DNA of 64,000 nt from Megalonaias nervosa (lineage: Eukaryota > Mollusca > Bivalvia > Unionida > Unionidae): NCBI GenBank assembly GCA_016617855.1, contig JAECUM010003228.1, positions 1 through 64,000 on the forward strand, in the 5' to 3' direction. A program made the position numbers and the translations under genes. The notes below the pieces were generated by a model that saw nothing but the letters and a program-made list of their open reading frames with translations, did not search any database and had not been told where the DNA came from. Below, piece after piece: positions 10,741 to 63,378 of the stretch. Numbering within the stretch: the first letter of the stretch is position 1; the number at the start of each line of letters is the position of its first letter.

Positions 10741-11692
10741 TGCTACATTTTAGAAGCAGGCCATTCTATAAACCACATATGTCTGGTGTAATTAGGAGTC
10801 GAAGAAGATAAACTGTGTTTCACCTGTTGAAAGATCGCCATAGATACTATGTCCAACACCGAGTCCACAGCCATGTTATGCATCAATTGCTGGGTATCCA
10901 AATGTAAAACTGGTGTGTGGGGCTTGCAGAATAACCGACTACAGTTGGAGGGAAGCAGAACTGCCAAACCTAACAAAATGTTCTCAGTAAGGTAGTCAAT
11001 TTTATTCCACAAGTTAGACCAGTTTTCAATAAGGTGTAACAAAATATCATGTATGTTATTGTCAAGCTGGAAAAAACATCTAAAAGTTCAGAAGTGTGCT
11101 TCAAGACAGATGCTGTGATGGTAAAGATTGTCTTCAATTAAAAAGTTTGTAAAGTGTACTTGGACCTTAATTACCTCCAGTACAGTTTCACAAACTGCAA
11201 TTCCAAACCCTATGGAGCTCAATTTCTTCTTGCTATCTCTCAACTTGTTGTAATCCTCACAAAAGCTTTAAATTTCATGTGGCGATAGCAATCATCCTTC
11301 CCACAACGAGACATACTCAAATCAACACATAATGTCCAATAAACTTAATTGTTGTCCTTTCTGCTATTTTCCATAGGAATCTGAATATTCCTTTTTATTT
11401 TCCTGTACTATTAAACTTTAAAGAGGCTTACTGCCCCTTTCATCCTGCAAATGTATCGCTTGCTGGATGCCAGTTATAGAAAATTCTAATATGCAACAGC
11501 TTGATCATGCAGACAGTTTGCATCACAAAATATGCACAGTTTAAAGTGTCTGAGGTTCTCCTGTAAAGTTAGTCTGGTTACCAAATCCACTGAATCTAAT
11601 TTGAAATCCAGAGAAAAGCCAGTATCTGGATTTTACCACAAAATAAATAATATTTCTGTAATTTGTGCTTTTATTCCAGAAGTCTATAATTT

Positions 11693-11693
<1 letters not shown>

Positions 11694-11730
<37 letters not shown>

Positions 11731-11731
11731 G
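11694..11731. repeat. (GT)n microsatellite, SINE tail
   Basis: A GT run with one GC interruption, at the 3' tail of SINE-1 copy 1. Confidence 0.95.
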
Positions 11732-12042
11732 TGATTTCGATTTTTAACACAGCTTTAACAATTTTTTAGTCATATCACTACGATGTCTGCAGTGTGACAG
11801 TTTATAGTGATATCTAGCACTGGGGCATCATGCCGCAGACATGTGGCATGATGTCCCACCCAGTCACATTATCCTGACACCAGGCCGACCAGTCCTAACA
11901 CTAACCTCTTAATGCTGAGCACCAAGCAAGGCAGCTGTTAGTACCATTTTTTAAAGTCTTTGGTATGACCCGGCTGGGGTTCGAACCCGCGACCTCCCAC
12001 ATCCAAGGCGGATGCTCTAACCACTAGGCCACCGGAGCGGTA
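11696..12042 (-). mobile_element. tRNA-derived SINE-1, copy 1
   Basis: On the minus strand the head reads GTGGCCTAGTGGTTAGAGCA (box A type), followed by GGTTCGAACCC (box B type). A shared body (GGCATGATGCCCCAGTGCTAG, CTGCAGACATC) and an (AC)n tail follow. It is flanked by TATAATTTAAG at 11685-11695 and TATAACTTAAG at 12043-12053, an 11-bp target duplication with one change. The insertion splits repeat B. Confidence 0.93.
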
Positions 12043-14939: not shown

Positions 14940-15033
14940 CTAAAAGCACCCTTCCCGCCAACTGTCATCAAAGTGGTTATTGTTCCTATTGCCATTGTTG
15001 GGTGTAACTTGTCTTGGAGAGGGAATGCCAGAT
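14940..15033 (-). CDS. SLAIN: SLAIN-family protein, terminal coding exon with stop
   Basis: A good acceptor (CTTGTTATTGCAG) opens this exon on the minus strand. Its first base completes an Arg codon left by the 36.7-kb exon, and 30 codons then run to a TAG stop at 14940-14942. The peptide contains RSGIPSPRQ, whose SGIP is a textbook SxIP EB-binding motif, and ends DDSWREGCF. Vertebrate SLAIN2 ends DDSWKDGCY, as I recall it, so both position and composition support the assignment. The three exons here give about 175 residues, against about 570-580 for vertebrate SLAIN1/2, so this is only the C-terminal third. The 3' UTR continues to lower coordinates. The reading frame appears to extend upstream of the acceptor into hydrophobic codons, but those are intron. 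Confidence 0.82.
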
Positions 15034-16995: not shown

Positions 16996-17304
16996 TGACC
17001 ACTCCAGTGACCTAAGAGGTTAGAGCATCCACCTCAGATGCGGGAGGTTGCAGGTTCGAATCCTGGCCGAGTCATACCAAAGACTTATAAAAATGGTACT
17101 GACAGCTGCTTGCTTGGCACTCAGCATTAAGAAGTTAGTTTTAGGACTGGTTGTCCTGGTGTCAGGATAATGTGACTGGGTGGGACATGATGCTATATGT
17201 CTGCAGCATGATGCCCCAGTGCTAGACATCACTATAAACTGCCACACTGCAGACATCATAGCGATATGACTAGAATTGCTAAGGCTACATCCAAATCACA
17301 CACA
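16996..17304 (+). mobile_element. tRNA-derived SINE-1, copy 2
   Basis: The only plus-strand copy of SINE-1. The head has CCTAAGAGGTTAGAGCATCC, then GGTTCGAATCC, the shared body, and a short CACACA tail. Flanking 14-bp duplications TTCACAATATTTTT lie at 16982-16995 and 17305-17318. Box A and box B show it is tRNA-derived. The anticodon region is not a real tRNA fold, so this is not a tRNA gene. Confidence 0.93.
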
Positions 17305-17318
17305 TTCACAATATTTTT

Positions 17319-21197: not shown

Positions 21198-21397
21198 AGC
21201 AAAACTAGAAATAGCTAGACAAGATTGTGATTCAAGCAAGGCAATGAAGGTGAGAAGAAACAAAATTATATTAGTACATCAATATCTTGTGCAAGATATT
21301 ATCATGAAGATATTAATGTACTAATATAATTTTGTTTCTTCTCACCTTCATCGCCTTGCCTGAATCACAATCTTGTCTAGCTATTTCTAGTTTTGCT
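21198..21397. repeat. Long near-perfect hairpin, 91-bp arms
   Basis: Bases 21198-21288 pair with 21307-21397 with about three mismatches over 91 bp, around an 18-nt spacer. The sequence has no coding frame and no recognised transposon end. See findings. Confidence 0.92.
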
Positions 21398-22508: not shown

Positions 22509-22518
22509 TGTATGTGAC

Positions 22519-22834
22519 GTGTGTGTGTGTGATTTGGACTTTAACGTCGCTTTAACAATTTTTCAGTCATATCACTACAATGTCTGCAGTGTGGCAGTTT
22601 ATAATGATGTCTAGCACTGGGGCATCATGCTGCAGACATGTAGAATCATGTTCCACTCAGTCACATTATCCTAACACCAAGCCGACTAGTCCTAACACTA
22701 ACCTCTTAATGCTGAGTGCCTAGCGAGGCAGCTAAGTACCAGTTTTATAAGTCTTTGGTGTGACTCAGCAGGGGTTCAAAACCCATGACCTCCCATGACG
22801 CAGATTCTCTAACCACTAGGCCACCAGAGTCATC
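22519..22834 (-). mobile_element. tRNA-derived SINE-1, copy 3
   Basis: Minus-strand copy. The head has GTGGCCTAGTGGTTAGAGAA and a box B with one inserted base; a small deletion lies between boxes A and B. The body is shared with the other copies and the tail is (AC)n. The 10-bp duplication TGTATGTGAC lies at 22509-22518 and 22835-22844. Confidence 0.92.
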
Positions 22835-24475: not shown

Positions 24476-27400
24476 TTTTCATGTGGTCATTTTTCATGTG
24501 GTGTGTCTAGGGCAGCTGATGCCTGGTGGAGCCCAACCCTCTCCAGGCCTGACCACAGCCGATTTCCTCCAACTAGGTGGCTCGCCTTGGTCATGAACAC
24601 GTAGCCGTTGAGCTGTTTGATAGCCTTTCTGCTTGGCCGTTGACTTTGTCTCAGAAGTTCTTCCGCCCAGTGATGCCGTGTTAACATCACACTATTTATC
24701 CATAGCTGGAAGACTCGTGGGGGGCGGGAGCGTCTATTTTCCCGTGCAAATCTGGAGGACTTGCCCACTGCCACTACATGAAAAATGACAACCATTACTC
24801 ATCCCATACCGGCTCAGTCGTTGCCCGGGTCAACAAGGGCCGCGCCTTCCGTCGTGCACCAGGACGGAAGTGGAAAGTATGCGACTGGTGCTCAGAGCAG
24901 CAAGATCCGTGTCAGGAACAACATCACCATTGGCACCTGGAATGTGAGAACACTGAGAGCAGCAGGAAAGCTTGAGGAGCTTACATATGAAATGAACAGA
25001 TACCGCTGGAACATCCTAGGACTCTGTGAGATACCATGGAAGAACATTGGAGAAACAACTACTTTGGAAGGCCACAAACTGTACTTCAGTGGCAGAGAGG
25101 ACAAACATGAGCAGGGAGTTGGGCTCCTTGTCAACAAGGACAGCGTGAGTTCTGTCATGGGATGTCGGCCAGTCTCCAGCCGGCTCATCACCATCCGCCT
25201 CAGGGCAACTCCATTCAACATCACCATCATACAGGCATACGCCCCAACATCAGACTATGATGACGCAGATGTGGAAGATTTCTATGACCAGCTACAAGAA
25301 GTTGTGGATAAAACACTGAAGAAAGACATTCTGGTTGTGCAAGGCGATTGGAATGCCAAGACAGGTGAGGATGCTTGCATGAACTGGAAAGGAACATGTG
25401 GGCGCTGCTGCAATGCACAAACCAACGAGAGTGGCCTGAGGCTCCTGGAATTTGCTAGTTACAACGACCTTATGCTGGCAAACACCTTCGGCCAACACAA
25501 AGTATCCAGAAGATGGACATGGCACAGTCCAAGCGGAGACCATCACAGTCAGATCGACTACATCATGGTGAAGAGGCGCGTACAGTCAAGTGTAAACATC
25601 GCAAGACTCAAAGCTTTCCCCGAACGGACATTGGAAGTGACCACGATCTGGTGATGATGACCTTCAGGCTACATCTAAAGAAGGTCAAGAAAGAGAGCCA
25701 CATAAGAATAAAGTTTGATCTCGAGAAACTGAAGGATCCCGAAGTAGCAGAAGCCTTCCGGGCAATGATTGGTGGGAAATTTGCACCGCTCACCATCCTC
25801 GACGCTGACGATACAGACATGGACACGTTGATCACCACCTTTAATACAGCAATGACCGAAACAGCCAGCGAGATCCTTGGTAGACATCGCCCAGTCAAGA
25901 AGCCATGGGTCACAGCTGAGGTCCTGAACCTGTGTGACAAGAGGAGGGAGCTGAGGAAGAAAAAGAATGATACAGAAGGGCAGAGCAGTACAAGGCAGTC
26001 AACCAGGAAGTCAAGAAAAGCCTGAAAAAAGCAAAAGAGAACTGGATAGAAGAACAGTCCAAAGACACTGAAGGAAACTTTAAAAGGAACAACAGCAAGA
26101 AAGCGTACCAAGTGGTCCAAGATCTAACAAGCACAAAACAACGGCGAGTTACCTCCTTACTGGACAAAGCCGGCAACTGCCTCACAGAAGAAAAAGACAT
26201 TCTGAAAAGATGGACAGAGTACTGCGCAGAACTTTACAACCACCGAGCCACAATAGATCCAGAGGTACTGAACGTCCCTCCAGCAACTGACAATGACAAC
26301 CACCCTATCCTATGTGAAGAAGCAGAAGCAGCAGTGAGATCGCTGAAAAAGAGGAAGTCAGCAGGATTGGACAACATCCCAGCAGAACTGGTCCAACCAG
26401 GGGGAGAAGCAATGATTAGCGCCCTGACAAACATCTGTAAAAAGATCTGGCAAACAGGAGTATGGCCATCGCCGTGGACCCAATCACTGATCATCATCCT
26501 CCCGAAGAAAGGCAACTTGCAACAGTGTCAAAACCACCGTACAATCAGTCTTATAAGCCATCCAAGCAAAGTCATGTTGAAGATACTGCTGAGCAGACTA
26601 AAGCCACAGGCTGAAAAGATCATTGCCGAGGAGCAGGCAGGTTTCAGAGCAGGGCGCGCACAACAGAGCAGATCTTCAACCTCAGGATATAGTGTGAGAA
26701 ATACCTCCAACACCAGCAGGATCTGTACCATGTCTTCATGGGTTTCAAGAAGGCATTTGACAGCATATGGCATGCAGCCTTGTGGGCGACCATGAGACTG
26801 TACAACATCAATGCCAACCTCATTACAGTAATAGAGCACCTCTATGACAAGGCCACCAGTGCAGTATACTTCAATGGCAGCATAGGGGACTGGTTCAGAA
26901 CAACAGTTGGAGTCAGACAAGGCTGTCTGCTCTCTCCCACATTATTCAACATCTTTCTGGAGAGAATCATGGCTGACGTACTTGAAAAGCATGAAGGGAA
27001 CAGTCACCAACTTACGTTTTGCCGACGACATTGATGGACTAGCAGGAAATGAGCAAGAACTAGCTAGCTTAGTAGAGAGCCTCGACAAAACCTCTGCAGC
27101 CTATGGCATGGAAATCAGTGCAGAGAAGACAAAAATGATGACCAACAACACCAAGGGCATCAGCACTGACATCAGGGTCCAAGGTACGAAGCTAGAAACA
27201 GTCCAGAGCTTCAAGTATTTGGGGGCAATTGTAACAGATGAAGGATCGAAGCCTGAAGTACTCTTCAGGATTACGCAGACAACAGCAGCGCTGACAAAAC
27301 TAAAGCCCATCTGGAGCGACAAGAACATCGCGCTCAGTTCAAAGGTCAGACTGATGCACTCACTGGTGATCTCCATATTTCTCTATGTCTGTGAATCATG

Positions 27401-27825
27401 GACCATAACAGCTGACTTAGAGAAAAGGATACAGGCCACAGAGATGAGATGCTTCCGAAAGATCCTCGGCATTTCATACAAAGACCGTGTCACCAATGAA
27501 GACATACGGCAAAGGATCAGACAAGCCATTGGGCCTCACGAAGACCTCCTGACCACAGTGAAAAAATGTAAACTGCAGTAGTATGGGCATGTCTCACGAT
27601 CATCAGGACTTGCCAAGACAATCCTGCAAGGCACTGTACAAGGAAGAAGAATGAGAGGCAGGGAGAGAAAGAGGTGGGAAGACAACATTCGGGAGTGGAC
27701 AGACTTGACACTGGGTGACTCACTGAAAAAGATGGAAAATCGAGAGGAATGGAGGAAGATGGTTGTCCGGTCTCATGCGGTGCCCCAACAGTTACCAGAC
27801 TACGGGACTGATGATGATGATGATG
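24476..27825 (+). mobile_element. RTE-clade LINE, near full length
   Basis: A 3.35-kb element bounded by an exact 11-bp duplication ACATGTAGCAT at 24465-24475 and 27826-27836. It has a roughly 300-bp 5' leader, one endonuclease-reverse transcriptase frame broken into pieces, almost no 3' UTR, and a (GAT)n tail. That layout, and the basic C-terminal block (RRMRGRERKRWEDNI...W), match RTE/BovB-type LINEs, often annotated as craniofacial development protein 2-like. It lies antisense to SLAIN inside its last intron. Minus-strand open frames across it are shadows. Confidence 0.93.
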
Positions 27826-31850: not shown

Positions 31851-33741
31851 GTTTGCATGTTTTATTTTTTTGCCTCAACAGTCAAATGCCCCAACAATCA
31901 CAAAGAGGAAACTGCATAAAAATAATTAAACTTCTTAGATATATATTACAATCAGGTTACTGACACATCATTTCCATATGACTGATTAGCTTTTACTATT
32001 GTGATATAAATTTTGTTTTTTTATATATTTCCTTACACAAATGAATAAATAATAAGACACATGTGGATACAACCACATAGAACGCATCAAAATTGTTGAA
32101 CATTTAAGATCCAACAATTTTTTTCATTATTATTCATTTCAACAATATGCAGAGGTCAGATTAATTAGGAACAATTACCAAACAACTACAACGTGCCAAG
32201 TCAGATTGATGTGTTAAAAATGCACCTTTCCCACACTGAAATTGACATCATCTTCTGATGCTAAAATTTTATAACTGTGCTACAATGGTCACTATCTTTA
32301 TTAAGTTTTCCAAGGGTTATATTATTTGAAACAATTTTATCTTGTGAAGAATGAAAGAATTTTAAAAATGCTCCAATTCGAAAGAACAATTAACGACCAG
32401 ACCCATACAGTATGAATGCAGTCAGAATTGAACTAAAGTTTGTAGCTGTGTACCTGTATATTCAGCCTCATGACTGGATTGTTACTTTAAAAGGACTCAA
32501 TACATGGTTCGCATGTAAGTGCAAATTCAGTGGGGATTTTTGTTCCATTTTTAAACAGAAGCTGCTGTCATCAGGAATTTGATTGTCCATACCTCAGATG
32601 AACACTTTTCATGTTTAAACAGTAGGATCACTTTGCACTGTTCAAGTGAAGAGCAACAAGGTTTCATCAAGCCAGTATGTAAGTTTGTTCAGATTTTTTT
32701 GAATAAAGAAAAAGCATAAACTTTTTGCAAAAGGTGTCAGTCAGCCTTGTGTACATGAAAAAAAATACAGTAGTATTACTACAGTTTTCGAGGCATTGTG
32801 AATATGCAAATACTAAAATTTGATTCGGCATTATATCTATTACATAATCTTCATTAGAACTAGGAAGTGTGTATAATCATCTGATAGCGACTTAGAAAAA
32901 TTGCTCTCTCCCTTCCTCTTTCTCTCTCTCCTTGCTGGGGTCATACACAGTAAGCCATGCCCATTTGAGTGACCACATCCACTGTGGTGGTCATCCTTGA
33001 CGACTCTGGGAGAAAGCATGGTGTGCAGAGCAATTCTCTGCAAGCAGCAGCAGCAACTCTGTCAAGACATGTGGAGAGATGGTGGAGGTTTTTTTTTTTC
33101 TTTAATCCTCTCCATTTTCTCTCTACTCCACTTTAATGCATGGGGTTCCAAAAAATACACATAAGCTGTACTGTATACAAACTCTACAACATTAAAAGAA
33201 TTAAATAAAGGTTATCTCATATTTCACATAAAGAAAGCTGTGCAGTGGCAGACAGTTTTATTCCATGCACATATCAAGTAAGTATCTACAAAGCAACCGC
33301 AAAAATTATAATTTAACTAATTACGTGTAGTTTAAGTAATACACAATGCATTCTTCTCTGGCCCCTTGCTGGGCCCCTCTTTGTCTACTATGATTTCTCA
33401 GCCCAGACATGTCATTGTAGCCAATATATGTTAATAGGCTAGAAACTGTATTTAGATATGTTATCAAGTTGAAACAATCAAATGAGTTGGTGCATGTGAT
33501 CAAACACTGTGTCAGTTAGGGCCGCATTCATATAGCAGCTGGGACGTCTGTGTAGATGCTGCATTTAATTTAACATTATTTGCAGAAAGAAAATGGATTT
33601 AGAGTCTCGGCATCAAACTATTCTTATGGATTTGTGCTGGATTTGAATCTGTCTACACTGGGACAATGTTAACAACATGGCTGACATGAATCGGTGAAGC
33701 AGCCATTACAGTAGAGTCAACCCTTTTGCTCACCCAGGCTC
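31851..33741. other. Intronic DNA, no gene recognised
   Basis: No coding motif. A pyrimidine-rich patch (CTTCCTCTTTCTCTCTCTCC) lies near 32910-32932. Confidence 0.45.
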
Positions 33742-33918
33742 GTCATCAATGGCCAACTATGATGTGACATAGTCTCTGCCAAAGCTTAAACAAGAACTTT
33801 CTTGACAAAGCATTCATTTCAGCCCAGTAATCCTGGGCTGAAATGAATGCTTTGTCAAGAAAGTTCTTGTCTAAGCTTTGGCAGAGACTATGTCACATCA
33901 CAGTTGGCCACTGATGAC
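33742..33918. repeat. Long hairpin, 86-bp arms, 5-nt loop
   Basis: 33742-33827 is the reverse complement of 33833-33918 with only a few mismatches, around the loop TAATC. It abuts the left 575-bp inverted repeat at 33915. No coding frame. Confidence 0.93.
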
Positions 33919-34489
33919 ATGAATGGTTGTTAAACTAAATTTGATTAGTATGTTCGGTCCAGCTACAAGCATTCTGTGTTAGTTTTATCTTTGCATCAAG
34001 GAAGTTTTACAAATAAGTGTTTAAAATATGGGATACCTAGAACCCCAAAATCATTTATTCCCAGTGTGGTTCATCCTCAGATGATGATTTAATTTGGCAA
34101 ATAATACCTCAATGTAGTGATGATGACAGAGATTTTCAAAGTTATAAACTATATCAGATTATTGGAGCTGGGGATGTGTTTATGAAGATTACAATGAGTG
34201 ATTTTGAAGCTGAAAATAATGTTGAATATTAATCCAATATACATGCTGGATGGACAATTTCAGTGGTATTTCAAATTTAAATGTAGAAAAGGCAAAATGC
34301 CAAACCTAATTAAAACACAAACAGTATAAAAGTAGAGTGCAATATTGATTTCTTTTTCATATGGAATTTAGCCCAGCAGAATCTTGTGCTACAAAACTAT
34401 GTTGATCAAAATATCTCTGTCTTACAAATGACACTGCGACATTGATGGACCTTAAGCCCTTATATGGCATTATGGAGTATATAAATCTG
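33915..34489 (+). repeat. 575-bp inverted repeat, left arm
   Basis: Reverse complement of 37654-38228 over the full 575 bp with only about ten substitutions seen and no length difference. It begins TGACATGAATGG and ends GTATATAAATCTG. Inside, a plus-strand frame of about 55 codons (GSSSDDDLIWQ ... AENNVEY, then stop) looks protein-like but was not recognised. See findings. Confidence 0.95.
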
Positions 34490-34597
34490 TGTAATGTGTA
34501 ATTTGTGTTTTCGGGGAATGTAGCACCAACACTGGATACTGATAGTCAGCCAATTCTCAGAACGGACAAATTCGCCCATGCGCAACCAAAGTTCCTC

Positions 34598-35392
34598 AGA
34601 CCTGCCAACCCTGACGAGTCCATCTCAGTAAGGCAGCTGATTTTTTTCCATAAGACTGACCAGTTTTCAGTAAGCTTTAACAAAATATCAATAACTACTA
34701 CTGTAAAGCTGGAAAATGTAATTAAAAGTTTGATGCAGCAATGATAAACATTATGTTCAACTGAAAAGTTTGTAAAGTACGTGTTGACTTTATTTACCAC
34801 TAGTACAGTAGCACAAACTTTAGTTCCAAACCCTATGCAACTCAATGGCTTGTTGCTATCTCTCAACTTGACTTAATTCTTGGAAATTCTTTTTCCATTT
34901 CACATGACGATGGCAATCATATCTCCCGCCACGAGACATACTCAAATTGGCATGTGATGTCCAATAAACGTACTTGTGTCCTTTCCTGCTTTAATTCACA
35001 AGAGTCTGAATACTCCTTTTTATTCTTCTGTGTCGATTATTAACACTTTTCTAGAAGCTTATTTTCCCTTTTGTCTTAAACATGCATTGCATTCTGGACA
35101 CCATTTTAAAAAAATTCTATAATCCACAGTTTGATCATGCAGACACTTTGCATGAACAAATAGGTGCAGTTTAAAGTGTCTGGGGTGTTGCTTTAAAGTT
35201 AGTTTGGTTCCCTGACTAATTTCACTAATTCTAATATGAAACCTGGGTCCAAATCAAACACGGACAAACCAATTATCTGGATTTTTTGGCAACAATCATT
35301 TCTCTGTAGTTTTTGCTTGTATGCCATAAGTCTGTATTTTAAGGGTAATTTTCGTAAGACTTACAGCAAAATTGTAAGAGTTGGCAGTTCTA
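34598..35392. repeat. Repeat B, copy 2 (uninterrupted)
   Basis: Same orientation and order as copy 1, without the SINE. The junction phrase AAGTCTGTATTTTAAGGGTAA shows the empty-site arrangement matching the copy 1 insertion point. It lies between the 575-bp inverted repeat arms. Confidence 0.82.
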
Positions 35393-36446
35393 GTTCTTTC
35401 AACACAGCCTAATGGTTTGACAGTTATGCTATTGTTGACAGCAGTGGTGGCATTGCAAAATATGGTAGCTACGTTAACTGCAAATATTCACTCCTTGACT
35501 GACTCTAGAATATTGGCATGAGGGAAGCACGGACCCATCTGATACACTATTCTTCAGGGCATGCAGAATCACTGCCGCTGGATGTCTCCATCTTGGACAA
35601 CAATGCAGCGCTAGGAGAAGACAACTTCCATCACTTCTGTGATGGTCGCAACATAATCTCAGATCTGTTTGGGCTAACTTCAGCCAATTTTGTTAAAACA
35701 ATCTATGGATACACAGCGGAGTACTTGCCGTTCATGGAGACAGTGCATCCAAATCTTCACAAATAAATTCAAGAAGATGCACATATTCTTCCAGCTCTCA
35801 TCTTATGGGTTTGGTTGGGATGATGTCACTTGCTTAGCGACCTACTTTCCGCCATATTGTGTGGTCACCTAGATTAATAGCAGCTGTTTTCACCTCAGCG
35901 GTAGTAACTATGTATTGAAAATGCCCAGATGTGAAAATGTGCCCGTCTTCAGACCCAACCTATGCAGAGGAAATCCCAGAGTAGGTCCCAGAACTATCGA
36001 CATTAACAGACTGGGAGTAATATTGCCCAATTTACTATAAATTGCTCTTTCTCATAGAAAAGGTATGTCAGAAGCGAGTAGTCTACTGAAAATAGGAGAT
36101 TAGCAGCACAGGGTTCATACAGTTATCCTGCTATAATTTCAAAGAAATGCAGCCCTTTTCTTATTTGATATAATACATAGAGAGAGTCAAACAAGAAGAT
36201 AGATCAAGAATATTTCCTTAAGACAACTATTAAAAAGATTCAAACACAAAGACCAGGCATTGATTAATGCAAACAGACAAATCAAAATTATGTTTGAATT
36301 ACAAACAGAGAGAATATCTGGGCAAAATGTAAACTTCTTTCCTTTTCCAAAACAAAACAGTACAACAAATTTGGCAGTACCTCAAAAACTCTTTGACAAA
36401 AGCTTGTGAAAACAAAGATATCAATTTTAGTTACTGATTATACTTG
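35393..36446. other. Intronic DNA; one unassigned plus-strand frame
   Basis: A plus-strand frame at 35518-35766 (82 codons, containing NNAALGEDNFHHFCDG) has protein-like composition, but no family was recognised and it has no clear splice borders. It is possibly an old mobile-element fragment. Nothing else is supported. Confidence 0.3.
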
Positions 36447-36636
36447 CTTATAAATCAAGTCCAACTGCAAACTGCACAGACCACAATCTGGCAATGCTTA
36501 ATGCACTGGCAGATCTATGTAATTAATTAGGAGTAATAAGTATAACAAACAATATAGACCCTGATCTGCTGGAGCATTATGCAACAGCAGATTAGGGTCT
36601 TTATTATTTGCAGCTGGACCAGACTTGAAAGTAAGT
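36447..36636. mobile_element. MITE-like repeat D, copy 3
   Basis: The left side reads CAAGTCCAACTGCAAAC, and the complement of the right side reads CTGGTCCAGCTGCAAAT, forming inverted termini. Inside, AGACCCTGATCTGCTG and its inverted partner (one mismatch) form a 16-bp stem around a 13-nt loop. It ends about 40 bp beyond the SLAIN exon donor at 36676. Confidence 0.55.
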
Positions 36637-36675
36637 ATAGACAGTAGTTTAATTCAGCTGTATTATCAAGCTAAC

Positions 36676-36994
36676 CTTCTAGGGGTGGGCAATCCTGAGG
36701 GTGTGGATCGCCCTGTACTCATCATTCTAGGTATCGATCTCCGAGTAGATGGCTGTGGAAGCCCAGGCCTCTGGGGTGACATGCCACGCTCATTCCGCTG
36801 TTGAGATGTTTTCAAACCACTGATGCCTGGTGAGGAAGTACGTCTCAGGGGCTGAAGCCTAGAAATCTGGCTTTCAGGTGACACTGCATCTTCATAATGG
36901 GCTATATCTAGATGTGGCTCACTGCCATGCAAGGAAAATTGGGGCTGAGCAAGGTGTGATACATTGGGAAGGCTTCTCCGCAAATGAGACGTGT
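36676..36994 (-). CDS. SLAIN: SLAIN-family protein, penultimate coding exon (319 bp, phase 1-2)
   Basis: The minus-strand acceptor TTTCTTTCAG is followed by 319 bp without a stop, and the donor is AAG then GTTAGC. The first two bases complete an Asp codon with the G left by the 63-kb exon, and the last two bases (AG) are completed by the first base of the 15-kb exon. The peptide is basic and Ser/Pro/Arg-rich. It begins DTSHLRRSLPNVSHL, matching the RRSLPN motif known from SLAIN1/2, and ends with proline-rich repeats (RPGLPQPS, TPSGLPTPRR). SGLP fits the [ST]-x-[IL]-P EB-binding consensus. SLAIN proteins are cytoplasmic plus-end-tracking factors linking EB1 and XMAP215/ch-TOG. The exon lies between two near-identical 575-bp inverted repeats. 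The donor is weaker than consensus at +3/+4. Confidence 0.82.
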
Positions 36995-37166
36995 CTGAAA
37001 GAAATATAGTTTTCATGAAAAAAGGTTTGGAAATGTGCTGCATAGCAATGGAGGTTAAACAAGGACATTCACCTGTGACCAGTGCTATTATGTATCACCA
37101 CTATCCACCCCAGCTTCTACTGAAAAATCTTTACAGACAAAAAGTCGTGATGTGAATTATTCAATC

Positions 37167-37232
37167 ACTGGTATTGCCACCATCAGAAATGTTATACCTA
37201 GGTCTAGCCATCACTGGTACCACCACTGAGGG
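37167..37232. repeat. Isolated unit of the 46-bp minisatellite
   Basis: CATCAGAAATGTTATACCTAGGTCTAGCCATCACTGGTA-like unit, the same as the array at 38487-38760 but on the other side of the right 575-bp arm. The middle of the unit is within the 46-bp period. Confidence 0.75.
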
Positions 37233-37653
37233 GGGAGGAGGAAATGCCCATAGTTCAGTATGTACCTCACACTTCAATATCCATCTCTTTCTTCATACTT
37301 CACTCTGAATGAGCTCAACTGAAATCAAAATCTTTAAAAAGATGTCACCTTTAATTGCATAGCATTAATCTGCTGACTGTTTGTGAACTTAATCTGTGCC
37401 TTATCTGTGTTTGAGTATTGTTCTTTGCTGAGACCACTCCCCCTTTTCACAGTCTGCTGTCTGAAGGGGCATATACAAAGCTAGCTTAGTCAGTCTGAAC
37501 AAGTTGGGAAAATGTTCTTTAAGTTAAGTACAATTTTCCACACCTCATAGGTGTTGTCCTTTGGATATTTTTGCTCCAAGATAAGATTTTTCATTAACAT
37601 AAGCTCTACCCAAGTTTGGCTTTCTTAAGCCAGTGCTTTGCTGACTATTATGC

Positions 37654-38228
37654 CAGATTTATATACTCCATAATGCCATATAAGGGCTTAAGGTCCATCA
37701 ATGTCGCAGTGTCATTTGTAAGACAGAGATATTTTGATCAACATAGTTTTGTAGCACAAGATTCTGCAGGGCTAAATTCCATATGAAAAAGAAATCAATA
37801 TTGCACTCTACTTTTATACTGCTTGTGTTTTAATTAGGTTTGGCATTTTGCCTTTTCTACATTTAAATTTGAAATGCCACTGAAATTGTCCATCCAGCAT
37901 GTATATTGGATTAATATTCAACATTATTTTCAGCTTCAAAATCACTCATTGTAATCTTCATAAACACTTCCCCAGCTCCAATAATCTGATATAGTTTATA
38001 ACTTTGAAAATCTCTGTCATCATCACTACATTGAGGTATTATTTGCCAAATTAAATCATCATCTGAGGATGAACCACACTGGGAATAAATGATTTTGGGG
38101 TTCTAGGTATCCCATATTTTAAACACTCATTTGTAAAACTTCCTTGATGCAAAGATAAAACTAACACAGAATGCTTGCAGCTGGACCAAACATACTAATC
38201 AAATTTAGTTTAACAACCATTCATGTCA
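37654..38228 (-). repeat. 575-bp inverted repeat, right arm
   Basis: Near-identical inverted partner of 33915-34489. Outside its 38228 edge the sequence is unrelated to the hairpin that follows the left arm. It lies about 660 bp upstream (in transcript sense) of the SLAIN exon acceptor at 36994. Confidence 0.95.
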
Positions 38229-38486
38229 AGCCAAAGAACTCAGATGCATAACAGATGACTATCTGAAAAGAAACAGATGTCACGACAAGTGCTACAATAC
38301 GACAGGTCGCATGACTTGTGACACAACAAGCACTTTATGGTTTAACAGTTAAATAAAAATTGTATACTGCACGCAGTACATTTTTATACATGCCACTTCA
38401 AACTAATTTGAAGGAGTTTTCGCACATCATTCCTTCCAAAGTGTGCAAATTCGTAAAAAAAACTTTGTATGATTCCAGGATTCGCA

Positions 38487-38760
38487 CGTCCTGGCATCTC
38501 CGTACCATCATAAGAAATGTTATACCTAGGTCTAACCATCTCTGGCATCACCACTATCAGAAATGTTGTACCTAAGTCGAACCATCTCTGCTATCACCAC
38601 CATCAGAAATGTTACACCTGGGTCTAACCATCTCTGGCATCGCAACTATCAGAAATGTTATACCTAAGTCGAACCACCTCTGGTATCTCTGCTATCAGAA
38701 ATACTATACCTAGGTCTAGTCACTTCTGGTACTGCCACCATCAGAAACATTATACGTACT
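38487..38760. repeat. 46-bp minisatellite, about 5.5 units
   Basis: The unit contains CAGAAATGTTATACCTAGGT and then CTAACCATCTCTGGCATC, repeated with a period of 46 bp and scattered substitutions. It creates overlapping plus-strand open frames that are not genes. Confidence 0.9.
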
Positions 38761-38838
38761 GTATTTCATGTATTTTTTCATACCCTTTAAACTTTTGTAC
38801 ACAATCCACTTATCAAAATAATAATTATTTAAATGTAT

Positions 38839-39754
38839 TGTTATGTATATTTAATTTAATTGTATGTCTGTTTTAAATTTTTTTTATTTCATTACATGTT
38901 ATTGTAATGTAACATTGTTTTCTGGACTTGACCTTGTCCAAAACCGAGTTCATTTCTGCTTGACCTGGCTGACTTTATTTCATTTATGTAAACAACGAAC
39001 AATAATCATTAATCTCTATGTGCATGAACTTATTAACAGAATTATTATTCAGGTAAACTAGAAGGAGTAAATATGTTGATTTGGGTCAGGGTTTTGGAGA
39101 TTACCAAGTGAATTTTATAGGCTGTTGTGTTGTAAATAAACAAGGCTCATTAGATCATTCTAGACACTTATTTTCTATTAGGTAATGGTTGTTTTTAGAA
39201 AATGCTAACTGTGACCTGAGGTCAAGCAGAGAACTATAATATCTTGTCACTGTGAGGATTTTACCAGTCGTGCTTTAACATCTAGCACTTTTAAGTTCTA
39301 TTATGTTGTGACCAGTTTGGGCTGAATTTTATTTTCTTCAAACTACTGAATTCAAGTGATTAGTTTCTCTGGAAATACAAAAGTGCTCTTATAAAATTCT
39401 TGGATAAAGACAATCACTGGAATTTATACTGAATTCAAACCTGGAATAATATCTCTGTGATTCAACAAGAGACTGTCAACACATCAGTATTTCATAGGCT
39501 ATAACAGACACATCATCGCCTTCAGTTTTGGATCTCTAGGGGACTTTAACTGAATTTTATTCAGGACTTTTTATTACTAGGACTTGTGTCTTTAATTCTT
39601 GGATTATTTTTGGATTTAATTCACAATACCCTAAGTTCTTTTTTTCTCAATTTTCACTTTGTATTCTAGGGAAATAAATTATTAGTTAAATTTTACAAAG
39701 CTTGTTGTCTTCACTCTTTTCTGTTATTTATTTTAAGAGCATAGACTCATAACA
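38839..39754 (+). mobile_element. Family A solo-LTR-like repeat, copy 4 (complete)
   Basis: 916 bp, starting TGTTATGTATATTTAATTT and ending AGACTCATAACA. The ends are TG...CA with 7-bp inverted termini TGTTATG/CATAACA, flanked by GTAT at 38835-38838 and 39755-39758. An AATAAA sits about 85 bp before the end. This fits a solo LTR of a Ty3/gypsy-type element; no coding region is present. Confidence 0.82.
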
Positions 39755-41808: not shown

Positions 41809-42013
41809 TGTATTCATATACTTGTGAGGACCTTGACATATGACTACATTTCGAGGACCATAAGAAGGAATGAAAGTATAGGTTAGAAATTTGAAAGTAA
41901 ATCTTTTTTTCCCTTTCTTCTTTGTTTATGCCTTAAAACCATATGCCCATAATTAAAGTTATCAAAAACGTGTGTAAACAGTAAATGAAGATAAATATGT
42001 ACGCGAGAAAAGG

Positions 42014-42338
42014 TGTGTGTGTGTGTGTTTTAGATTTTTAATGCAGCTTTAACAATTTTTCAGTCATATAGCTACTATGTCTGCAGTGTGACAGTTTACA
42101 GTGATGTCTAACATTGGGGCATCATGCCGCAGACATGTAGCATGATGTCCCATCCAGTAACATTATCCTGACACCAGGCCGAACAGTCCTAACACTAACC
42201 TCTTAATGCTGAGCTTCAAGCAAGGCAGCTGTCAGTTCCATTTTTTAAAGTCTTTGGTATGACTCGGCCGGGGTTCGAACCCACGACCTCCCGCATCTGA
42301 GGCGGATGCTCTAACCACTAGGTCACCAAAGCGGTCGT
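42014..42338 (-). mobile_element. tRNA-derived SINE-1, copy 4
   Basis: Minus-strand head with ACCTAGTGGTTAGAGCATCC and GGTTCGAACCC, the full shared body and an (AC)n tail. An exact 11-bp duplication GCGAGAAAAGG lies at 42003-42013 and 42339-42349. Confidence 0.94.
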
Positions 42339-47588: not shown

Positions 47589-47904
47589 GTGTGTGTGTGT
47601 GTGTGTGACTTGGATGTTTATTGTAGCTTTAACAATTTTTCAGGCATATCGCTATGATGTCTGCAGCATGGCAGTATATAGAGATTTCTAGCACTGGGGC
47701 ATAATGCTGCTGTCCCACCCAGTCACATTATCCTAACATCAGGCCAACCAGTCCCAACACTAACCTCTTAATGCTGAGCACCTAACGAGACAGCTGTTAG
47801 TACCATTTTTATGGTTTTGGTATGACTTGGCCAGGGTTCGAACCAGAGACATCCCGCATCTGGGATGGACGCTCTAGCCACTAGGCCACTGGAGTGGTCG
47901 GTAG
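47589..47904 (-). mobile_element. tRNA-derived SINE-1, copy 5
   Basis: Minus-strand copy, with GTGGCCTAGTGGCTAGAGCG and GGTTCGAACC in the head, a body with a short deletion after the CATGATG region, and an (AC)n tail beside the (GA)n tract. The likely duplication is GCAAATGGA/GCAAATAGA at 47580-47588 and 47905-47913, with one mismatch. Confidence 0.9.
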
Positions 47905-52569: not shown

Positions 52570-52705
52570 TCCCTAATCCCGACCGCCCCCCCATGCTGTT
52601 TTCTCGATGTCCAAGTAATTTTTGGAGGTCCCTCGGTAACTCGCGCCCTCGCTTATAGCACAGTCTATGTTTGTGGACCCCGTTGTGCGCGAGTTATTGA
52701 GGGAG
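52570..52705. other. G+C-rich, CpG-containing patch
   Basis: Contains CCCGACCGCCCCCCCATGC, CTCGCGCCCTCGC and GTGCGCGAG in otherwise A+T-rich DNA. It could be a small promoter-like region or the remnant of another repeat. The CR1/L2-like LINE fragment starts just after it. Confidence 0.4.
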
Positions 52706-52710
52706 TGGTG

Positions 52711-53775
52711 TATTTGCCATTCACAATACAGCCTTACTATGGTTCAAGTCCTACTTGGTCAACAGGACACAAATTGTGTCTGCAAATGGAAAACACTCCA
52801 GCCCAGTTGATCTATGTTGTGGTGTTCCACAGGGGTCTGTTCTTGAACCTGTTTTCTTCATTCTGTACACTCAGCCACTCTCAAGTGTCATAGATCATCA
52901 TCCAGTGTCTCACCAATTATATGCTGATGACACCCAAATATACAAATCTAGCCACCCAACTGAAGTTGAAGCTACCATCCAAGGTGTAGAGAGGTGCATT
53001 TCCAATGTGAAATTATGGATGACATGTAACAAGCTGCAGATGAATGATGATAAAACTGAAGCCATTCTGATTACAACACAAAGACTTTCTCACTCACATC
53101 CTTTACCTCAGACAATAAATATCAGCAACACCAACATTAAATTCACACAGTTAGTACAAAACCTAGGTGTTGCTCTCGACAGTACTCTCTCATTGCACCA
53201 ACATGTCATGAACATATGCAAGGCTGCATATCTTGTGCTGAGACGCATCAGCTTGATTCGCAAGTATCTTTCAGTTGATGCCACTAAAACACTTGTGTGT
53301 TCCTTAGTACTTTCAAGACTGGACTATTGTAAATCAATTATATCTGGTTCATCTCAACATCTACTCCAGAAACTTCAAAAAAGTTCAAAACACAGCTTCT
53401 TGGATCATCCTCAGAGTACCACGATCAGAGCACGCCTCCCCCCTGCTCTGTACCCTACACTGGCTATCCATTCAATCCAGAATTAAACACAAAATTTGTT
53501 CCCTGTGCTACGTTTCACTGATGGGCTCCAGTCCAACATACCTATCCGACCTCACCTATGTGTACACACCAGCAAGATACTTACGCTCCTCTTCTGACAC
53601 TCATATTCTCATTATTCCCACTATGAAAATGAAATCATATGGACAATGTTCCTTTGCATATCAGGGCCCAGCAACGTGGAATGAATTGTCCACTGAACTT
53701 AGACACAAAGACACAGTGATCTCATTCAAGAGAGCTCTTAAAACTCACCTATTTCAACTGCAAGAACAGACTTAA
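52711..53775 (+). pseudogene. CR1/L2-like reverse transcriptase C-terminal part
   Basis: One frame (52711-53390) carries ALLWFKSYLVNRTQ, CGVPQGSVLEPVFFILYTQP, the catalytic YADD (YADDTQIY), MNDDKTEAI, NLGVALDSTLSLHQH and SRLDYC. A frameshift near 53385 moves the reading to the next frame, with SEHASPLLCTLHWLSI, YLSDL, RYLRSSSD, WNELSTELR and FKRALKTHLF, the conserved C-terminal blocks of this group. The N-terminal endonuclease and RT fingers are absent. Confidence 0.9.
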
Positions 53776-57275: not shown

Positions 57276-59828
57276 GGATGCATTAACTAAAACATTTTTT
57301 CAAGTTCTTTAATTTTTTTTATTGCAATTTGATAATGAGGTTATTGTTGCTGTTAGAATATAAGTGCACTTAACTTCTTGACAATGAGGGCTCATATCAT
57401 TGCGTACAATTTACCAATAAATAATACCCATAACTAATACATTCTTAATCATTTTGCCAATGTTACACACCTAACAGCTACAATGAAGTATGCTCAAAAT
57501 GCAGATGAGCTTGCACATTGAGACATTATCCTCTCTCTGTCTTCTGCTAATAACAAAAATCATTTTGAGTACTTTTATTTTTATTGTAACTGGATTCTTG
57601 AGTTGACAGCTGAATGAGACAATAGATTTCGTTTATTTTGTATGTTTGTATCATTAGGTTGTTTAGTAGCATGTGTTCTGTACACCTTGTTCAGGTACGA
57701 TCCCTTTATTTTTCATACACAGTCAGTACCACAAAATGATATTTATTTTCCAATTGATTTTTCATACTCTGAAATTAATAATTATTTTTTTGTGTTAAAA
57801 AATTACATGCAATACATGGGTCTAGATATCTGCTGAACAAAGGAGCAACAATAAATCTGTCCTCACTTATGGTAATAAAACACCGGAGTCTATAAATGAA
57901 GAACTTTCTGAAAACTTTAAATCTCAGGATTCTGGCCTCCATTGTCCCTCTCATAAATGAAGCTAATAAAAAAAAACTGTACTGATAAAAACTGAAAGTC
58001 TCCAACAGAAGAAAAGTTTTGTTTATCCCAATAGGTGTTTGGTTTTCACAAGTTTATTTATACTATGAGTTGGGGAACAGAATGTGTTCACTTGTATGTG
58101 ATGTTCTCTCTAGATAATTCAGTATGTTTAGAATATATGAGAGTGTGGGCCAGATTAAATTTATGGCCTCAACTATAATGAAGTTTCTGGATGGGGTAAA
58201 ATTTAATGATGTAGTATTTACCTGTTGCTATTGTGTAGCTTACTCTATATGGGATGAAAATTCCCGTCGTCAATATGAGCATTCATCCTCCAAAAGAACG
58301 ACTTCCAGAAATTTCTGGAAGCCAATCTAGCATCACTAGCCCATGTGCAGTCATCCTTGTCTATTTTCCAAGGATGCAGACTACTTGTGGGACATCAGTG
58401 TGAGGAGAATCTGGAAATAGCAACAGTTGAGTATTACATCATTAAAATTAATTTTACCCCCTACCAAAACCAAATTTTAATCTCAGTAATATGTTACCTG
58501 TTGCTATTGCATGTCCTGGCTTTAATGATGTACTTGGACACTTTGTTTGAAAACTCTTCCTGGCAAAGAGATCATTTGAGACAAGCCATGCAGGAAGGTG
58601 GTGAATCTGTGGGTTGTTGTGCAGGAGAGACCCCTGTGCTGTGACAGAAGGTCCCTCCTCTGGGGCAAAGTCCTAGGCTGACCTACCTGCAGAATGAGAT
58701 CGCTGAACCACTGAGGCCACAGATGGGCAAATAAAATGTGTGGAGGTCCTTATTTACAGAATTACTTGTGGAATCATCTTGATTGGTGGCAAAAGTGTAA
58801 GCAAACAGATGATCTCACTTCAGGTCACTGGGGATCCCTATCTTCCAGTATTTCAATCACTGGTTGATCATTAGAACCCCTCCTGTGTGACAGACTGGCC
58901 AATGTGGATCAACCAATGATTAAAGTACAAAGCAGCAGGAGAGGGGTCATTTAGAAGAACAGAGCCTATCTCCCTCTCTCCTTTGAATTTCCACTTTGCA
59001 AGAGGGTGATGCCAGTCTGTAGACCACAACATTGACTTGTCTAGTATAAGGCCAAGGCATGAAGTCCATGTCTGCACAAAAGAGAAGGCCCAATTACTTC
59101 CATGCATTGGATGACCTCACATCCCATAGAAATTGAGTAGGATAATAGCAAAGAAAGGATGCCAATCTGATCCCCTTCCCAAGTCTGGTGCCTGAATGCC
59201 AACTCCTAGTCCTTGAGGGATTCTATGATAGTGCTTTTAGTAAAGTATTCGTCTGGCCAGAGACAATAAAATGGACAACCCTCTGTCCATTTAAAACTGT
59301 GCATGCCATACAGAATGGGTGGGAATACCTGAAAGATTTTTTATGTCCACATTTTGTCCAAGTTTATTTCTTAGACATTGCTGAAAAGAAAATTTCTTAA
59401 AACAAGATTAATAATCTTGTATATAAATACATGATCTGTGAGTATTTGCAAAGAACCAGACATCACTACACTTTAAAATAGCAATATTGTACTGTGCCTG
59501 TCTTGAAGTCTCATATTAAAAGAATTAAAACAACACTGATGTTTCAATCATAATTATGTCATCAATACTGACTGCTGAACACCAGAGATAAATAATAGTA
59601 AAATGAACAGCAAGGTAATATGAAATAATAAGGAAATTCTGTTCTTCACTGACTATAATAAACAAAAGGGTGTGTATTTACCACTAAACACAAATGAATA
59701 TGAAAGCTGGTGTAAGACTACCTTCCGCGAGTCAAGTACAAAAAAAACTGAACGGAAAATCGATTTAGTCATATGTACTCAGTAAATTAATAAAAGAGAG
59801 GTCACAAACCAATCTCACAAGGATAGGG
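57276..59828. other. Intronic DNA; weak trace of another DIRS-like element
   Basis: 58600-59200 is less A+T-rich than its surroundings. A minus-strand frame at 59107-58871 contains WTSCLGLILDKSML, loosely like the LGliwdt motif of DIRS reverse transcriptases. This is too weak to call. The rest shows nothing. Confidence 0.25.
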
Positions 59829-60755
59829 TGTTATGTATATTTAATTTGCATTGTTTGCTTGTTATTTTTTTTAAATTTCATTACATGCTATTGTAATGTA
59901 TCATTGTATGTTGGACTTGACCTTGTCCAAAATTGAGTTCATTTCTACTTGACCTGAATTGACTTGATTCTGTAAAAAAAATTATACATAGCTAAATTAT
60001 TCTCTATGTGTATGGGTTTAAAATCAGAATTATTATTAATAGAAGCAAATATGTTTATTTGGGTCTAGGTCTAGGTTTTGGAATTTCCTTAGTGTATTTG
60101 ACATAATCCAGGTTCTGGTTTCTAATAATAACTAATATTTTTATTTTGTAAACATCAGGATAATTCTATAAGGCTATTTTCCATTAGGTAATAGTTTTTC
60201 TAGAAAATGCTAATTGTGACCTGAGATCAAGTACAGAACTATATAATCTTGTAACTGAGAGGATTTTTCAGTTGTGTTTTAAGATCTAGCACTTTCAAGT
60301 CATATTATATACTGTGTCCAGTTGGGCTGAAATTTATTTCTTCAAATTACTGAATTCATGTGATTATTTTCTATGGAAATACAAAAGTGCTCCAATAAAA
60401 TAGTTGGATAGAGACAATTGCTAGAATTTTAGAGTGAATTCAAACCTGAAATTACATGACTGTGATTCAACAAAACACTGTTGGCACATCAACATTCTAG
60501 GAGCTACCACAGACACATCATCACCTTCACTATTGGCTTTAGTTTTGACTTCTACCAAATTTTAGTTAAGACTTTAAATTATCAGAACTTGTGTCTGTAA
60601 TTCTAGGATTTTTTTTGGATTTAATTTTAATACTGTAAGTTTTTTTCTCATTTTCACTTTGTATTCTAGGGAAATAAATTAATTATCAAATTTTACAAAG
60701 CTTGTTGTTTTTCACTCTTTTCTGTTATTTATTTTAAGAGCACAGACTTGTAACA
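59829..60755 (+). mobile_element. Family A solo-LTR-like repeat, copy 5 (complete)
   Basis: 927 bp. It starts TGTTATGTATATTTAATTTG and ends CAGACTTGTAACA, with an exact 4-bp target duplication AGGG at 59825-59828 and 60756-60759. It shares blocks along its whole length with copy 4, including GTATTCTAGGGAAATAAATT near the 3' end. Confidence 0.88.
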
Positions 60756-60894
60756 AGGGAAACTAAACAGATACCACTACCCAAAGTCTAGAAAATATGA
60801 AAAATGTAATTAATTTACAATAAAAAATTACCCTAACACCTCTGTGGAGAAGGGGGTAACCTAAAGGTAAGATTATGAATAAACAATGTGACGA

Positions 60895-61750
60895 CATTAT
60901 GGTCTTAAACAAAGCAACAGAAAGAGTGAAAACCCAACACATTTTGTAAAATTCAGCAAATAATTTATTTCCCTAGAATACAAAGTGGAAATTAAAAAAC
61001 TTATATTATTGTGAATTAAATCCCAAATAGTCATACACATTCTATCACAAGTCCAAATGTATGAAGTTCCAACTGATTTCAGTGGTATTCCAAATACATT
61101 CCAATACTGAATGTGTTGATATGCCTGTGGTCTCAAATGTGCTGTGTGACAATGGCCTGGAATGTAGTGATGTACTAACTGTCTTTTAATGTAACACAAT
61201 AATATAATCCAAAACGTCCTTGTCTGAATTCACTATAATTCCAAATGAATGTTTTGGTCCAACAATATTATTTAGCACTTTTTAATTCCAGTGAATAATA
61301 ATTTGAATAAATAAATAAATAAAACCAAATTAAAAAATGAAAACAATAAGACTGATTCTGCTTCAGATGTTAAGGCAAGAATGAATAATTCTTAGGTAAA
61401 CAAGATTATGCTCCCCTTTATTTGAACTAGGTCACAATTACCATTTTCTGGAAATACTGCCAGCTTAATGTGAAGTGTCCTTTCTAGAAGTTTCTAAGGT
61501 CAGAATCAAGACAGTTTTGTATCTTTAACTCAAACTGAAGTAAAAATTTTTACGGTTAATAATGATCTGAATATTCAATCCACAATCAGTGAGAAATATT
61601 AGCTATGTATTATACTGTTTACAAAATAACTGTCACTGATCAGGTACACCATTAACTTCATTTTGGACAAAAGTCAAGTACAAAATACAGATATATATAA
61701 CATATAATCATGGAAAAAAGCCAACAAATACAAATTGAAGATACATAACA
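60895..61750 (-). mobile_element. Family A solo-LTR-like repeat, copy 6
   Basis: Reverse-oriented, about 856 bp. It begins CATTATGGTCTTAAAC and ends AGATACATAACA. Flanks ACGA (60891-60894) and ACGT (61751-61754) form a 4-bp duplication with one change. It lies 139 bp from copy 5 in opposite orientation. Confidence 0.82.
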
Positions 61751-63264: not shown

Positions 63265-63378
63265 CTGACTGTGGATGTAGATGCTGGTTACTACCAAAAG
63301 GACTATCAGGGGGACTGCTGCTATTGTCTGAACCAAGACTATTGTTACTGTTGTTCATCTTATGATTTATTCCTTCAG
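63265..63378 (-). CDS. SLAIN: SLAIN-family protein, internal exon (114 bp, phase 1-1)
   Basis: Read on the minus strand, a pyrimidine-rich acceptor (CTCTCTTTATCAG) precedes an open 114-bp exon, and a strong donor (CAG then GTAAGC) follows it. The exon starts with two bases completing a codon and ends with one base of the next, so it is phase 1 at both ends. The reading is Ser/Asn-rich, with SSPPDSPFGSNQHLHPQ near the end. This suits the low-complexity, phosphorylatable middle of SLAIN proteins, which bind EB1 and ch-TOG and promote processive microtubule growth. Assignment rests mainly on its phase match to the next exon (36994-36676), whose SLAIN character is clearer; by itself the peptide is not diagnostic. 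A 114-bp symmetric exon could be skipped without changing frame. Upstream exons lie beyond the window. Confidence 0.72.

What the first reader, a model, noticed from the sequence alone, without database searches (positions are those of the whole stretch)
33915..38228. Single SLAIN exon bracketed by near-identical 575-bp inverted repeats
The arms 33915-34489 and 37654-38228 are exactly equal in length (575 bp) and differ by only about ten substitutions by eye, far fewer than the neighbouring repeats. They sit in the two introns around the 319-bp exon 36994-36676. Inverted intronic repeats flanking an exon are a known driver of back-splicing into circular RNA, and can also mediate recurrent inversion of the exon. 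The similarity implies either recent origin or continuing gene conversion between arms.
Basis: partly seen in the sequence, partly recalled or inferred. Interest (0 to 1): 0.78.

Follow-up and report, generated by a model that had tools for sequence, protein, structure and literature searches.

The report
Mirror-image intron copies flank SLAIN exon
In what looks like a freshwater-mussel gene, one exon sits between two nearly identical 575-base DNA copies in opposite orientation; this looks like a fairly recent local copying accident that could make the exon form a circular RNA, but no RNA data were available to test that.

Summary
Arms 33915-34489 and 37654-38228 are reverse complements over exactly 575 bp, with 7 substitutions, no indel, 98.8% identity. 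All four edges run into unrelated sequence. The enclosed 319-nt exon (36994-36676, minus strand) is very probably the penultimate coding exon of a SLAIN gene. It fits in phase to exons at 63378-63265 and 15033-14940, and the joined peptide matches Pfam SLAIN weakly (E 3e-4, below the curated cutoff). The one protein relative found is from the freshwater mussel Potamilus streckersoni. The arms are by far the strongest of 34 inverted pairs in the window, 11 of which span the exon, and have no third copy there, so a duplex that could promote back-splicing or skipping is plausible but untested. No target-site duplication was found. The exon's strand argues against a simple inversion. The left arm shares 4 bases with the end of a 177-nt near-perfect palindrome. 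I favour a local, templated inverted duplication over two insertions of a young repeat. The copy-number test that would decide could not be run: the genome search did not complete six times.

The parts
33915..34489 (+). left arm of the inverted repeat, 575 bp, in the intron downstream of the exon
   Evidence: 98.78% reverse-complementary to 37654-38228, no indel
37654..38228 (-). right arm of the inverted repeat, 575 bp, in the intron upstream of the exon
36676..36994 (-). 319-nt probable SLAIN exon, enters in phase 1 and leaves in phase 2; inferred penultimate coding exon
   Evidence: splice sites, phases; joined peptide, Pfam SLAIN, sub-cutoff; Potamilus streckersoni protein 91% identical over 62% of the joined peptide
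63265..63378 (-). upstream exon, 114 nt, phase 1 to phase 1
   Evidence: AG/GT boundaries, phase fits 36994; within the 175-aa joined query but outside the stretch matched by Pfam (80-175)
14940..15033 (-). coding part of the terminal exon, ending DDSWREGCF and stop
   Evidence: AG acceptor, phase fits 36676; the Pfam stretch runs to the last profile position (429 of 429)
33742..33918 (.). 177-nt near-perfect palindrome whose end shares 4 bp (TGAC) with the outer edge of the left arm
   Evidence: mismatches at 3 of 86 pairs outside the loop
34490..36675 (-). 2186 nt of intron between exon and left arm; holds a diverged repeat copy 34597-35346 and a weaker palindrome 36432-36646
36995..37653 (-). 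659 nt of intron between right arm and exon; holds one stray unit of a 46-bp repeat at 37164-37227

Best explanation
Shown: two 575-bp copies, inverted, 1.2% diverged, with unrelated flanks, lie in the two introns around one probable SLAIN exon in a genome that looks like a freshwater mussel's. Inferred origin: a replication or repair fork that stalled or broke at the palindrome 33742-33918 switched template, using about 4 bp of microhomology, copied 575 bp from the site 3.2-4.3 kb away in inverted sense, and switched back; the left arm is then the copy and the right arm the source. Inferred consequence: in the nascent transcript the arms can pair into a duplex of about 575 bp that loops out the exon with 659 nt of upstream and 2186 nt of downstream intron. 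That should favour back-splicing of the exon into a 319-nt circle and/or its skipping. Skipping shifts the frame and replaces the C-terminus. I put circle formation at detectable level at about 0.4 and a selected role at about 0.05; both are judgements.
For: Sharp edges, no indel, no homology outside. No target-site duplication: best exact flanking match 3 bp (left arm) and 4 bp (right arm), typical of 500 random 575-bp segments. No third copy in the window. The arm starts and ends in unlike sequence and has no terminal tail; the peptides read from it and tested gave no Pfam hit with E below 0.06 and no Rfam family at its gathering score. The palindrome ends within the first 4 bp of the left arm; my scan found three strong palindromes in the window (no row dropped by its G+C filter), so a palindrome end within 4 bp of one of the four arm edges is expected about 0.3% of the time (6 x 4 x 9 / 64000, my arithmetic). 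Short-range template switches that leave inverted repeats, and hairpins that stall forks, are described in PMC7954356 (passages); repair as the source of inverted duplications is also discussed in PMC7584159 (passages). Pairing: predicted duplex energy -995.6 kcal/mol against -474.2 for the second-ranked exon-spanning pair.
Against: The genome could not be searched, so a multi-copy family is not excluded; 51% of the Potamilus assembly is repeats and 25.5% uncharacterised repeats (PMC7937423, passages). A copy of 575 bp over more than 3 kb is probably longer than the short-range events of PMC7954356 (their size limit was not read). The inner junction cannot be tested for microhomology without the ancestral sequence. 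The 4-bp match alone has a 1 in 256 chance. Palindrome divergence (3 of 86) does not differ clearly from the arms' (7 of 575; Fisher p 0.13, or 0.046 counting 4 of 88), so whether the palindrome came first is open. At the one difference in a CpG the left arm keeps the C, which speaks weakly against the left arm as the copy if CpG decay is the cause. No expression data. ADAR1, which binds double-stranded RNA, lowers circle formation (PMC4999478, passages).
Confidence: 0.55

Rival explanations
1. Two independent insertions of one young, unclassified repeat family landed in opposite orientation about 3 kb apart; they would act on splicing as an inverted pair of interspersed repeats does.
For: Both copies share the same two ends, as a complete element would. 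The window is rich in repeats, and 25.5% of the Potamilus assembly is uncharacterised repeats (PMC7937423, passages).
Against: No target-site duplication at either copy; no terminal inverted repeat or tail; no Pfam hit with E below 0.06 in the arm peptides tested and no Rfam family at its gathering score (the permissive scan gave each arm one weak lncRNA match, E 0.24, 19 of 37 bits needed); no third copy in 64 kb, while separate copies of other repeats listed are at most 93% alike. Canonical Helitron ends (5' TC, 3' CTRR, recalled) are not at the arm ends in either orientation.
Confidence: 0.27
2. Inversion with staggered breaks: the 3.2-kb segment was inverted and the overhangs filled in, leaving inverted duplications at both ends.
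For: A described cause of inverted duplications at inversion ends; at the Drosophila O7 breakpoint duplications of 59 and 534-540 bp are reported (PMC7584159, passages).
Against: The enclosed exon is on the same strand as, and in phase with, both neighbours; one inversion of that segment would mean that the exon lay on the wrong strand before. It would need a second, restoring inversion.
Confidence: 0.04
3. The arms are the 575-bp terminal inverted repeats of one 4.3-kb fold-back type element.
For: Equal arm lengths and high identity.
Against: The interior holds a phase-compatible exon of the host gene plus an older repeat copy; no target-site duplication at 33915/38228 (best 4 bp, at shifted offsets).
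Confidence: 0.03
4. Assembly artefact: one arm is a misplaced haplotype copy.
For: 1.2% is within the range of allelic divergence in molluscs (recalled); no reads were available.
Against: Each arm has its own unrelated flanks; hairpin-read or haplotype-duplication artefacts normally mirror or repeat the flanks too (general knowledge).
Confidence: 0.06
5. The pair is kept by selection because a circular SLAIN RNA or regulated skipping of the exon is useful, with arm identity held by gene conversion.
For: Human SLAIN1 gives a circular RNA, hsa_circ_0000497 (PMC8248110 and PMC9092689, passages), so the gene family can host circles; long flanking introns.
Against: The human circle is 788 nt and multi-exon, not one exon of 319 nt; skipping here shifts the frame; no conservation data; the differences show no tract edges, with little power.
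Confidence: 0.05

Closest known systems
Inverted intronic repeats that promote back-splicing (mouse Sry, reverse complementary matches; Alu pairs recalled)
   Same: Complementary sequences in the two introns around the exon, long flanking introns, single exon of a few hundred nt
   Different: Longer and more nearly perfect than any other inverted pair in this window; not shown to belong to a repeat family; no circular RNA shown
Template-switch or microhomology-mediated inverted duplications
   Same: Inverted local copy, abrupt edges, no target-site duplication, palindrome with 4-bp microhomology at one junction
   Different: 575 bp copied over 3-4 kb; the ancestral state has not been seen, so the event itself is inferred
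[quoted passage not shown]
   Same: Duplicates of about 0.5 kb around a few kb
   Different: Orientation of the enclosed exon contradicts a single inversion
Human circSLAIN1 (hsa_circ_0000497)
   Same: Circular RNA from a gene of the same family
   Different: 788 nt and multi-exon in human; this would be a single 319-nt exon, and it has not been observed

Membership tests
circRNA-promoting inverted intronic repeat pair | reverse-complementary sequences in the two introns around the exon | tested here: met
   575 bp, 98.8%, one in each flanking intron
circRNA-promoting inverted intronic repeat pair | cross-exon pairing not outcompeted by pairing within one intron | tested here: met
   the arm has no other match in the window at E 1e-3; 11 of 34 inverted pairs join the two flanking introns, and the arms are the best of all 34 (1006 bits, next 351). 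By sequence only; folding of the whole introns was not computed
circRNA-promoting inverted intronic repeat pair | back-splice junction in RNA | not testable with these tools
SLAIN gene family | match to the Pfam SLAIN model above its cutoff | tested here: inconclusive
   PF15301 E 3.1e-4, 20.8 bits (cutoff 27), residues 80-175 of the three-exon joined peptide, profile 351-429 of 429; only the C-terminal part of the gene lies in the window; the middle exon alone matched 0 families
Transposable element insertion (two copies) | target-site duplication around each copy | tested here: not met
   best exact match 3 bp (left arm) and 4 bp (right arm); of 500 random 575-bp segments 42 gave none, 212 gave 3, 147 gave 4, 61 gave 5 and 38 gave 6 or more. 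Some element classes make no such duplication
Transposable element insertion (two copies) | further copies in the genome | not testable with these tools
   none in the window; own-genome search unanswered six times
Template-switch inverted duplication | microhomology at the junctions | tested here: inconclusive
   4 bp at the left outer junction; the other junction cannot be judged without the ancestral sequence
Staggered-break inversion | enclosed segment inverted relative to the ancestor | tested here: not met
   the exon is on the gene's strand and in phase with both neighbours; indirect, no outgroup genome was available

The most novel reading that the evidence does not exclude
One replication accident made both the 177-nt palindrome and the 575-bp inverted copy, and thereby gave a mussel SLAIN gene a lineage-specific circular RNA from a single penultimate exon: a new circRNA locus born in one step without a transposon.
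Probability: 0.12. Interest if true: 0.55.

Novelty: new member of a known kind. Interest (0 to 1): 0.33.

Why it matters
Exon-spanning inverted repeats known to drive circular RNAs are, as I recall, mostly pairs of interspersed repeats. A young, nearly perfect pair without a visible repeat family around a single exon would be a clean natural case for measuring how a new duplex changes splicing, editing and stability of a gene, and for asking whether circRNA loci can arise by local copying accidents. As it stands it is a structural observation without RNA or population data.

Tried and rejected
Gene-conversion reading: no tract edges or gradient visible, but 7 differences give little power. 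Terminal repeats of a single element, and staggered inversion: rejected on exon phase and strand. Coding content of the arm: a 63-aa open frame gave no relative (1 candidate, none with E up to 1) and one sub-cutoff Pfam hit (E 0.064, an archaeal-virus capsid model), taken as chance; three further reading frames with X at stops gave at best E 0.11; the remaining frames of the arm were not searched. The open frame next to the left arm (34549-34872, minus) gave one sub-cutoff Pfam hit, E 0.046, also taken as chance. An open frame on the plus strand at 35509-35763 gave no Pfam family and no homologue. Rfam permissive scan of 33600-38500 (14 matches with E up to 0.5): 12 are microRNA models on the two palindromes, some with low E-values (best 6.9e-15) but all below their gathering scores and several on both strands, taken as generic hairpin matches; 2 are one weak lncRNA model on each arm (E 0.24). 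A 27-base exact pattern from the arm had 0 matches in genome contigs, a bacterial and archaeal set, so this says little. Guess of a cephalopod from recalled SINE words: no support. Literature: a search for 'circular RNA' with 'freshwater mussel' listed 3 papers, off topic by title and start of abstract; a search for mollusc with circular RNA, inverted repeats and intron listed 1 off-topic review. These cover only the held open-licence library. All six papers cited were seen as passages, none in full.

My errors: one search took the upstream exon one base too long at its start. One search took it one base too long at its end, so its joined translations are shifted; its second palindrome count (66 mismatches) and the Fisher value printed there came from an off-centre cut. 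One search replaces all of these.
Full report
What was checked. The repeat finder returned the inverted pair at exactly the stated coordinates, 575 nt each, 3164 nt apart. A direct comparison gives 7 substitutions, at arm positions 41, 51, 101, 261, 353, 407 and 461, 5 transitions and 2 transversions, with no gap: 98.78%. One difference is a C in a CpG on the left against T on the right, which hints that the left base is ancestral there. A local alignment that included about 300-400 bp of flank on each side stopped at the same 575 bp. Jukes-Cantor divergence is 0.0123, Poisson 95% range about 0.5-2.5%.

The gene. The exon 36994-36676 on the minus strand has AG before and GT after it. It enters in phase 1 and leaves in phase 2. 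An upstream exon 63378-63265 (114 nt) and a terminal exon with coding part 15033-14940 fit these phases; the joined reading frame runs through to a stop after DDSWREGCF. That these three exons are consecutive is inferred from phase and sequence, not from a transcript. The first came from an open frame, the last from a scan with motif patterns that I recalled from SLAIN proteins. The joined 175-aa peptide matches Pfam SLAIN (PF15301) with E 3.1e-4 and 20.8 bits over residues 80-175, profile positions 351-429 of 429; this is below the curated cutoff of 27 bits. The middle exon alone matched no family. So the SLAIN name is likely, not proven.

The organism. The joined peptide had 1 relative with E up to 1 among 67 candidates: a 117-aa hypothetical protein of Potamilus streckersoni, a freshwater mussel, 91% identical over 62% of the query, E 5.1e-52. 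Only proteins of 0.55 to 1.75 times the query's length are candidates in that search, so full-length SLAIN proteins could not appear. The Potamilus model also contains residues that this window encodes in the introns next to the exon (MKTIFLS before it, LA after it), so it looks like a gene model that reads out of the exon, and the intron edges are conserved. The window is therefore probably from a unionid mussel of another species; this is an inference from one protein.

Is it a mobile element? The arm had no other match in the window at E 1e-3. Neither copy has a target-site duplication: the best exact flanking match, with shifts up to 6, is 3 bp for the left and 4 bp for the right arm; of 500 random 575-bp segments 42 gave none, 212 gave 3, 147 gave 4, 61 gave 5 and 38 gave 6 or more. 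Start and end of the arm are unlike each other and there is no terminal tail. The 63-aa open frame in the arm had no homologue; of the arm peptides given to Pfam the best hit had E 0.064, below its cutoff; not every frame was searched. The permissive Rfam scan gave each arm one weak lncRNA match, E 0.24. The own-genome search, which would decide, did not complete in six tries. Potamilus has 51% repeats, 25.5% of its assembly being uncharacterised ones (PMC7937423, passages), so a family without known hallmarks remains possible.

Is it an inversion scar? Staggered breaks can leave inverted duplications of this size at inversion ends, and repair has been offered as another source of them (PMC7584159, passages). 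But the enclosed exon is on the gene's strand and in phase on both sides. A single inversion of the enclosed segment would mean that it was on the wrong strand before, so this reading needs two inversions.

The palindrome. A 177-nt palindrome, 33742-33918, with mismatches at 3 of 86 pairs outside the loop, ends 4 bp inside the left arm, the shared bases being TGAC. My scan for strong palindromes found 3 places in the window, at about 4694, 21297 and 33830, and its G+C filter dropped no row; a weaker one lies at 36432-36646. With six ends and four arm edges, a coincidence within 4 bp is expected about 0.3% of the time (my arithmetic). Hairpin-forming sequences can stall replication, and template switching leaves inverted repeats (PMC7954356, passages). 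I take this as moderate support for templated copying into the site beside the palindrome. Against it, the CpG difference named above would, if it is CpG decay, make the left base the older one. Whether the palindrome is older than the arms is open: 3 of 86 against 7 of 575 gives Fisher p 0.13, and 4 of 88 gives 0.046.

RNA consequences. Of 34 inverted pairs in the window (E up to 1e-3; palindromes counted as pairs), 11 join the two introns around the exon. The arms are the best of all 34 with 1006 bits; the second in the window has 351 bits and the second across the exon 338 bits at 84%. Predicted duplex energy is -995.6 kcal/mol against -474.2 for that second cross-exon pair. The arms lie 659 nt before and 2186 nt after the exon in the transcript, within introns of about 26.3 and 21.6 kb. 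Inverted repeats around the exon and long flanking introns go with circle formation, while ADAR1 lowers it (PMC4999478, a review, passages). A human SLAIN1 circle is known (hsa_circ_0000497; PMC8248110, PMC9092689, passages), but it is 788 nt and multi-exon. Skipping of this exon would shift the frame and replace the C-terminus DDSWREGCF. A one-exon circle of 319 nt has no endless reading frame; stops occur.

Verdict. The repeat and the exon are real. The most likely history is a fairly recent local inverted duplication; a pair of young repeat insertions is the main rival. Circle formation is a fair prediction, untested. Recurrent inversion and continuing gene conversion have no positive support. 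The kind of thing is known; the pair stands out for its length, near-perfect match and lack of a visible repeat family.

Noticed in passing
window 24782-27581 (+): Remains of a non-LTR retroelement: endonuclease domain (PF03372, E 2.4e-7) and reverse transcriptase (RVT_1, E 3.6e-8) in separate frames.
   Followed up: partly
window 52701-53483 (+): A second reverse transcriptase fragment (RVT_1, E 2.6e-12).
   Followed up: no
window 11715-12041, 16997-17310, 22512-22830, 42009-42332, 47589-47899: Five copies of a tRNA-derived SINE-like repeat about 300 bp long; two still score as tRNA in Rfam and ARAGORN.
   Followed up: partly
window 38464-38801 and 37164-37227: A 46-bp tandem repeat array just outside the right arm, with one stray unit between the right arm and the exon, so the right arm sits between pieces of the same repeat.
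   Followed up: no
window 10956-11698 and 34597-35346: Two copies of a repeat, about 71% alike; the second starts 107 bp beyond the inner edge of the left arm.
   Followed up: no
window 21198-21397: Another long palindrome, 97% over 91-nt arms; no long inverted pair abuts it in the list.
   Followed up: partly
window 38839-39752 and 59828-61458: Diverged interspersed repeats present several times around 39 kb and 60 kb, in both orientations.
   Followed up: no
window 35509-35766 (+): An 85-aa open stretch on the strand opposite to SLAIN, between the arms, preceded by a TAG that could be a splice acceptor; no Pfam family or homologue.
   Followed up: partly
protein P0001: The Potamilus streckersoni database protein seems to read out of the SLAIN exon into both flanking introns, i.e. 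a faulty gene model.
   Followed up: no
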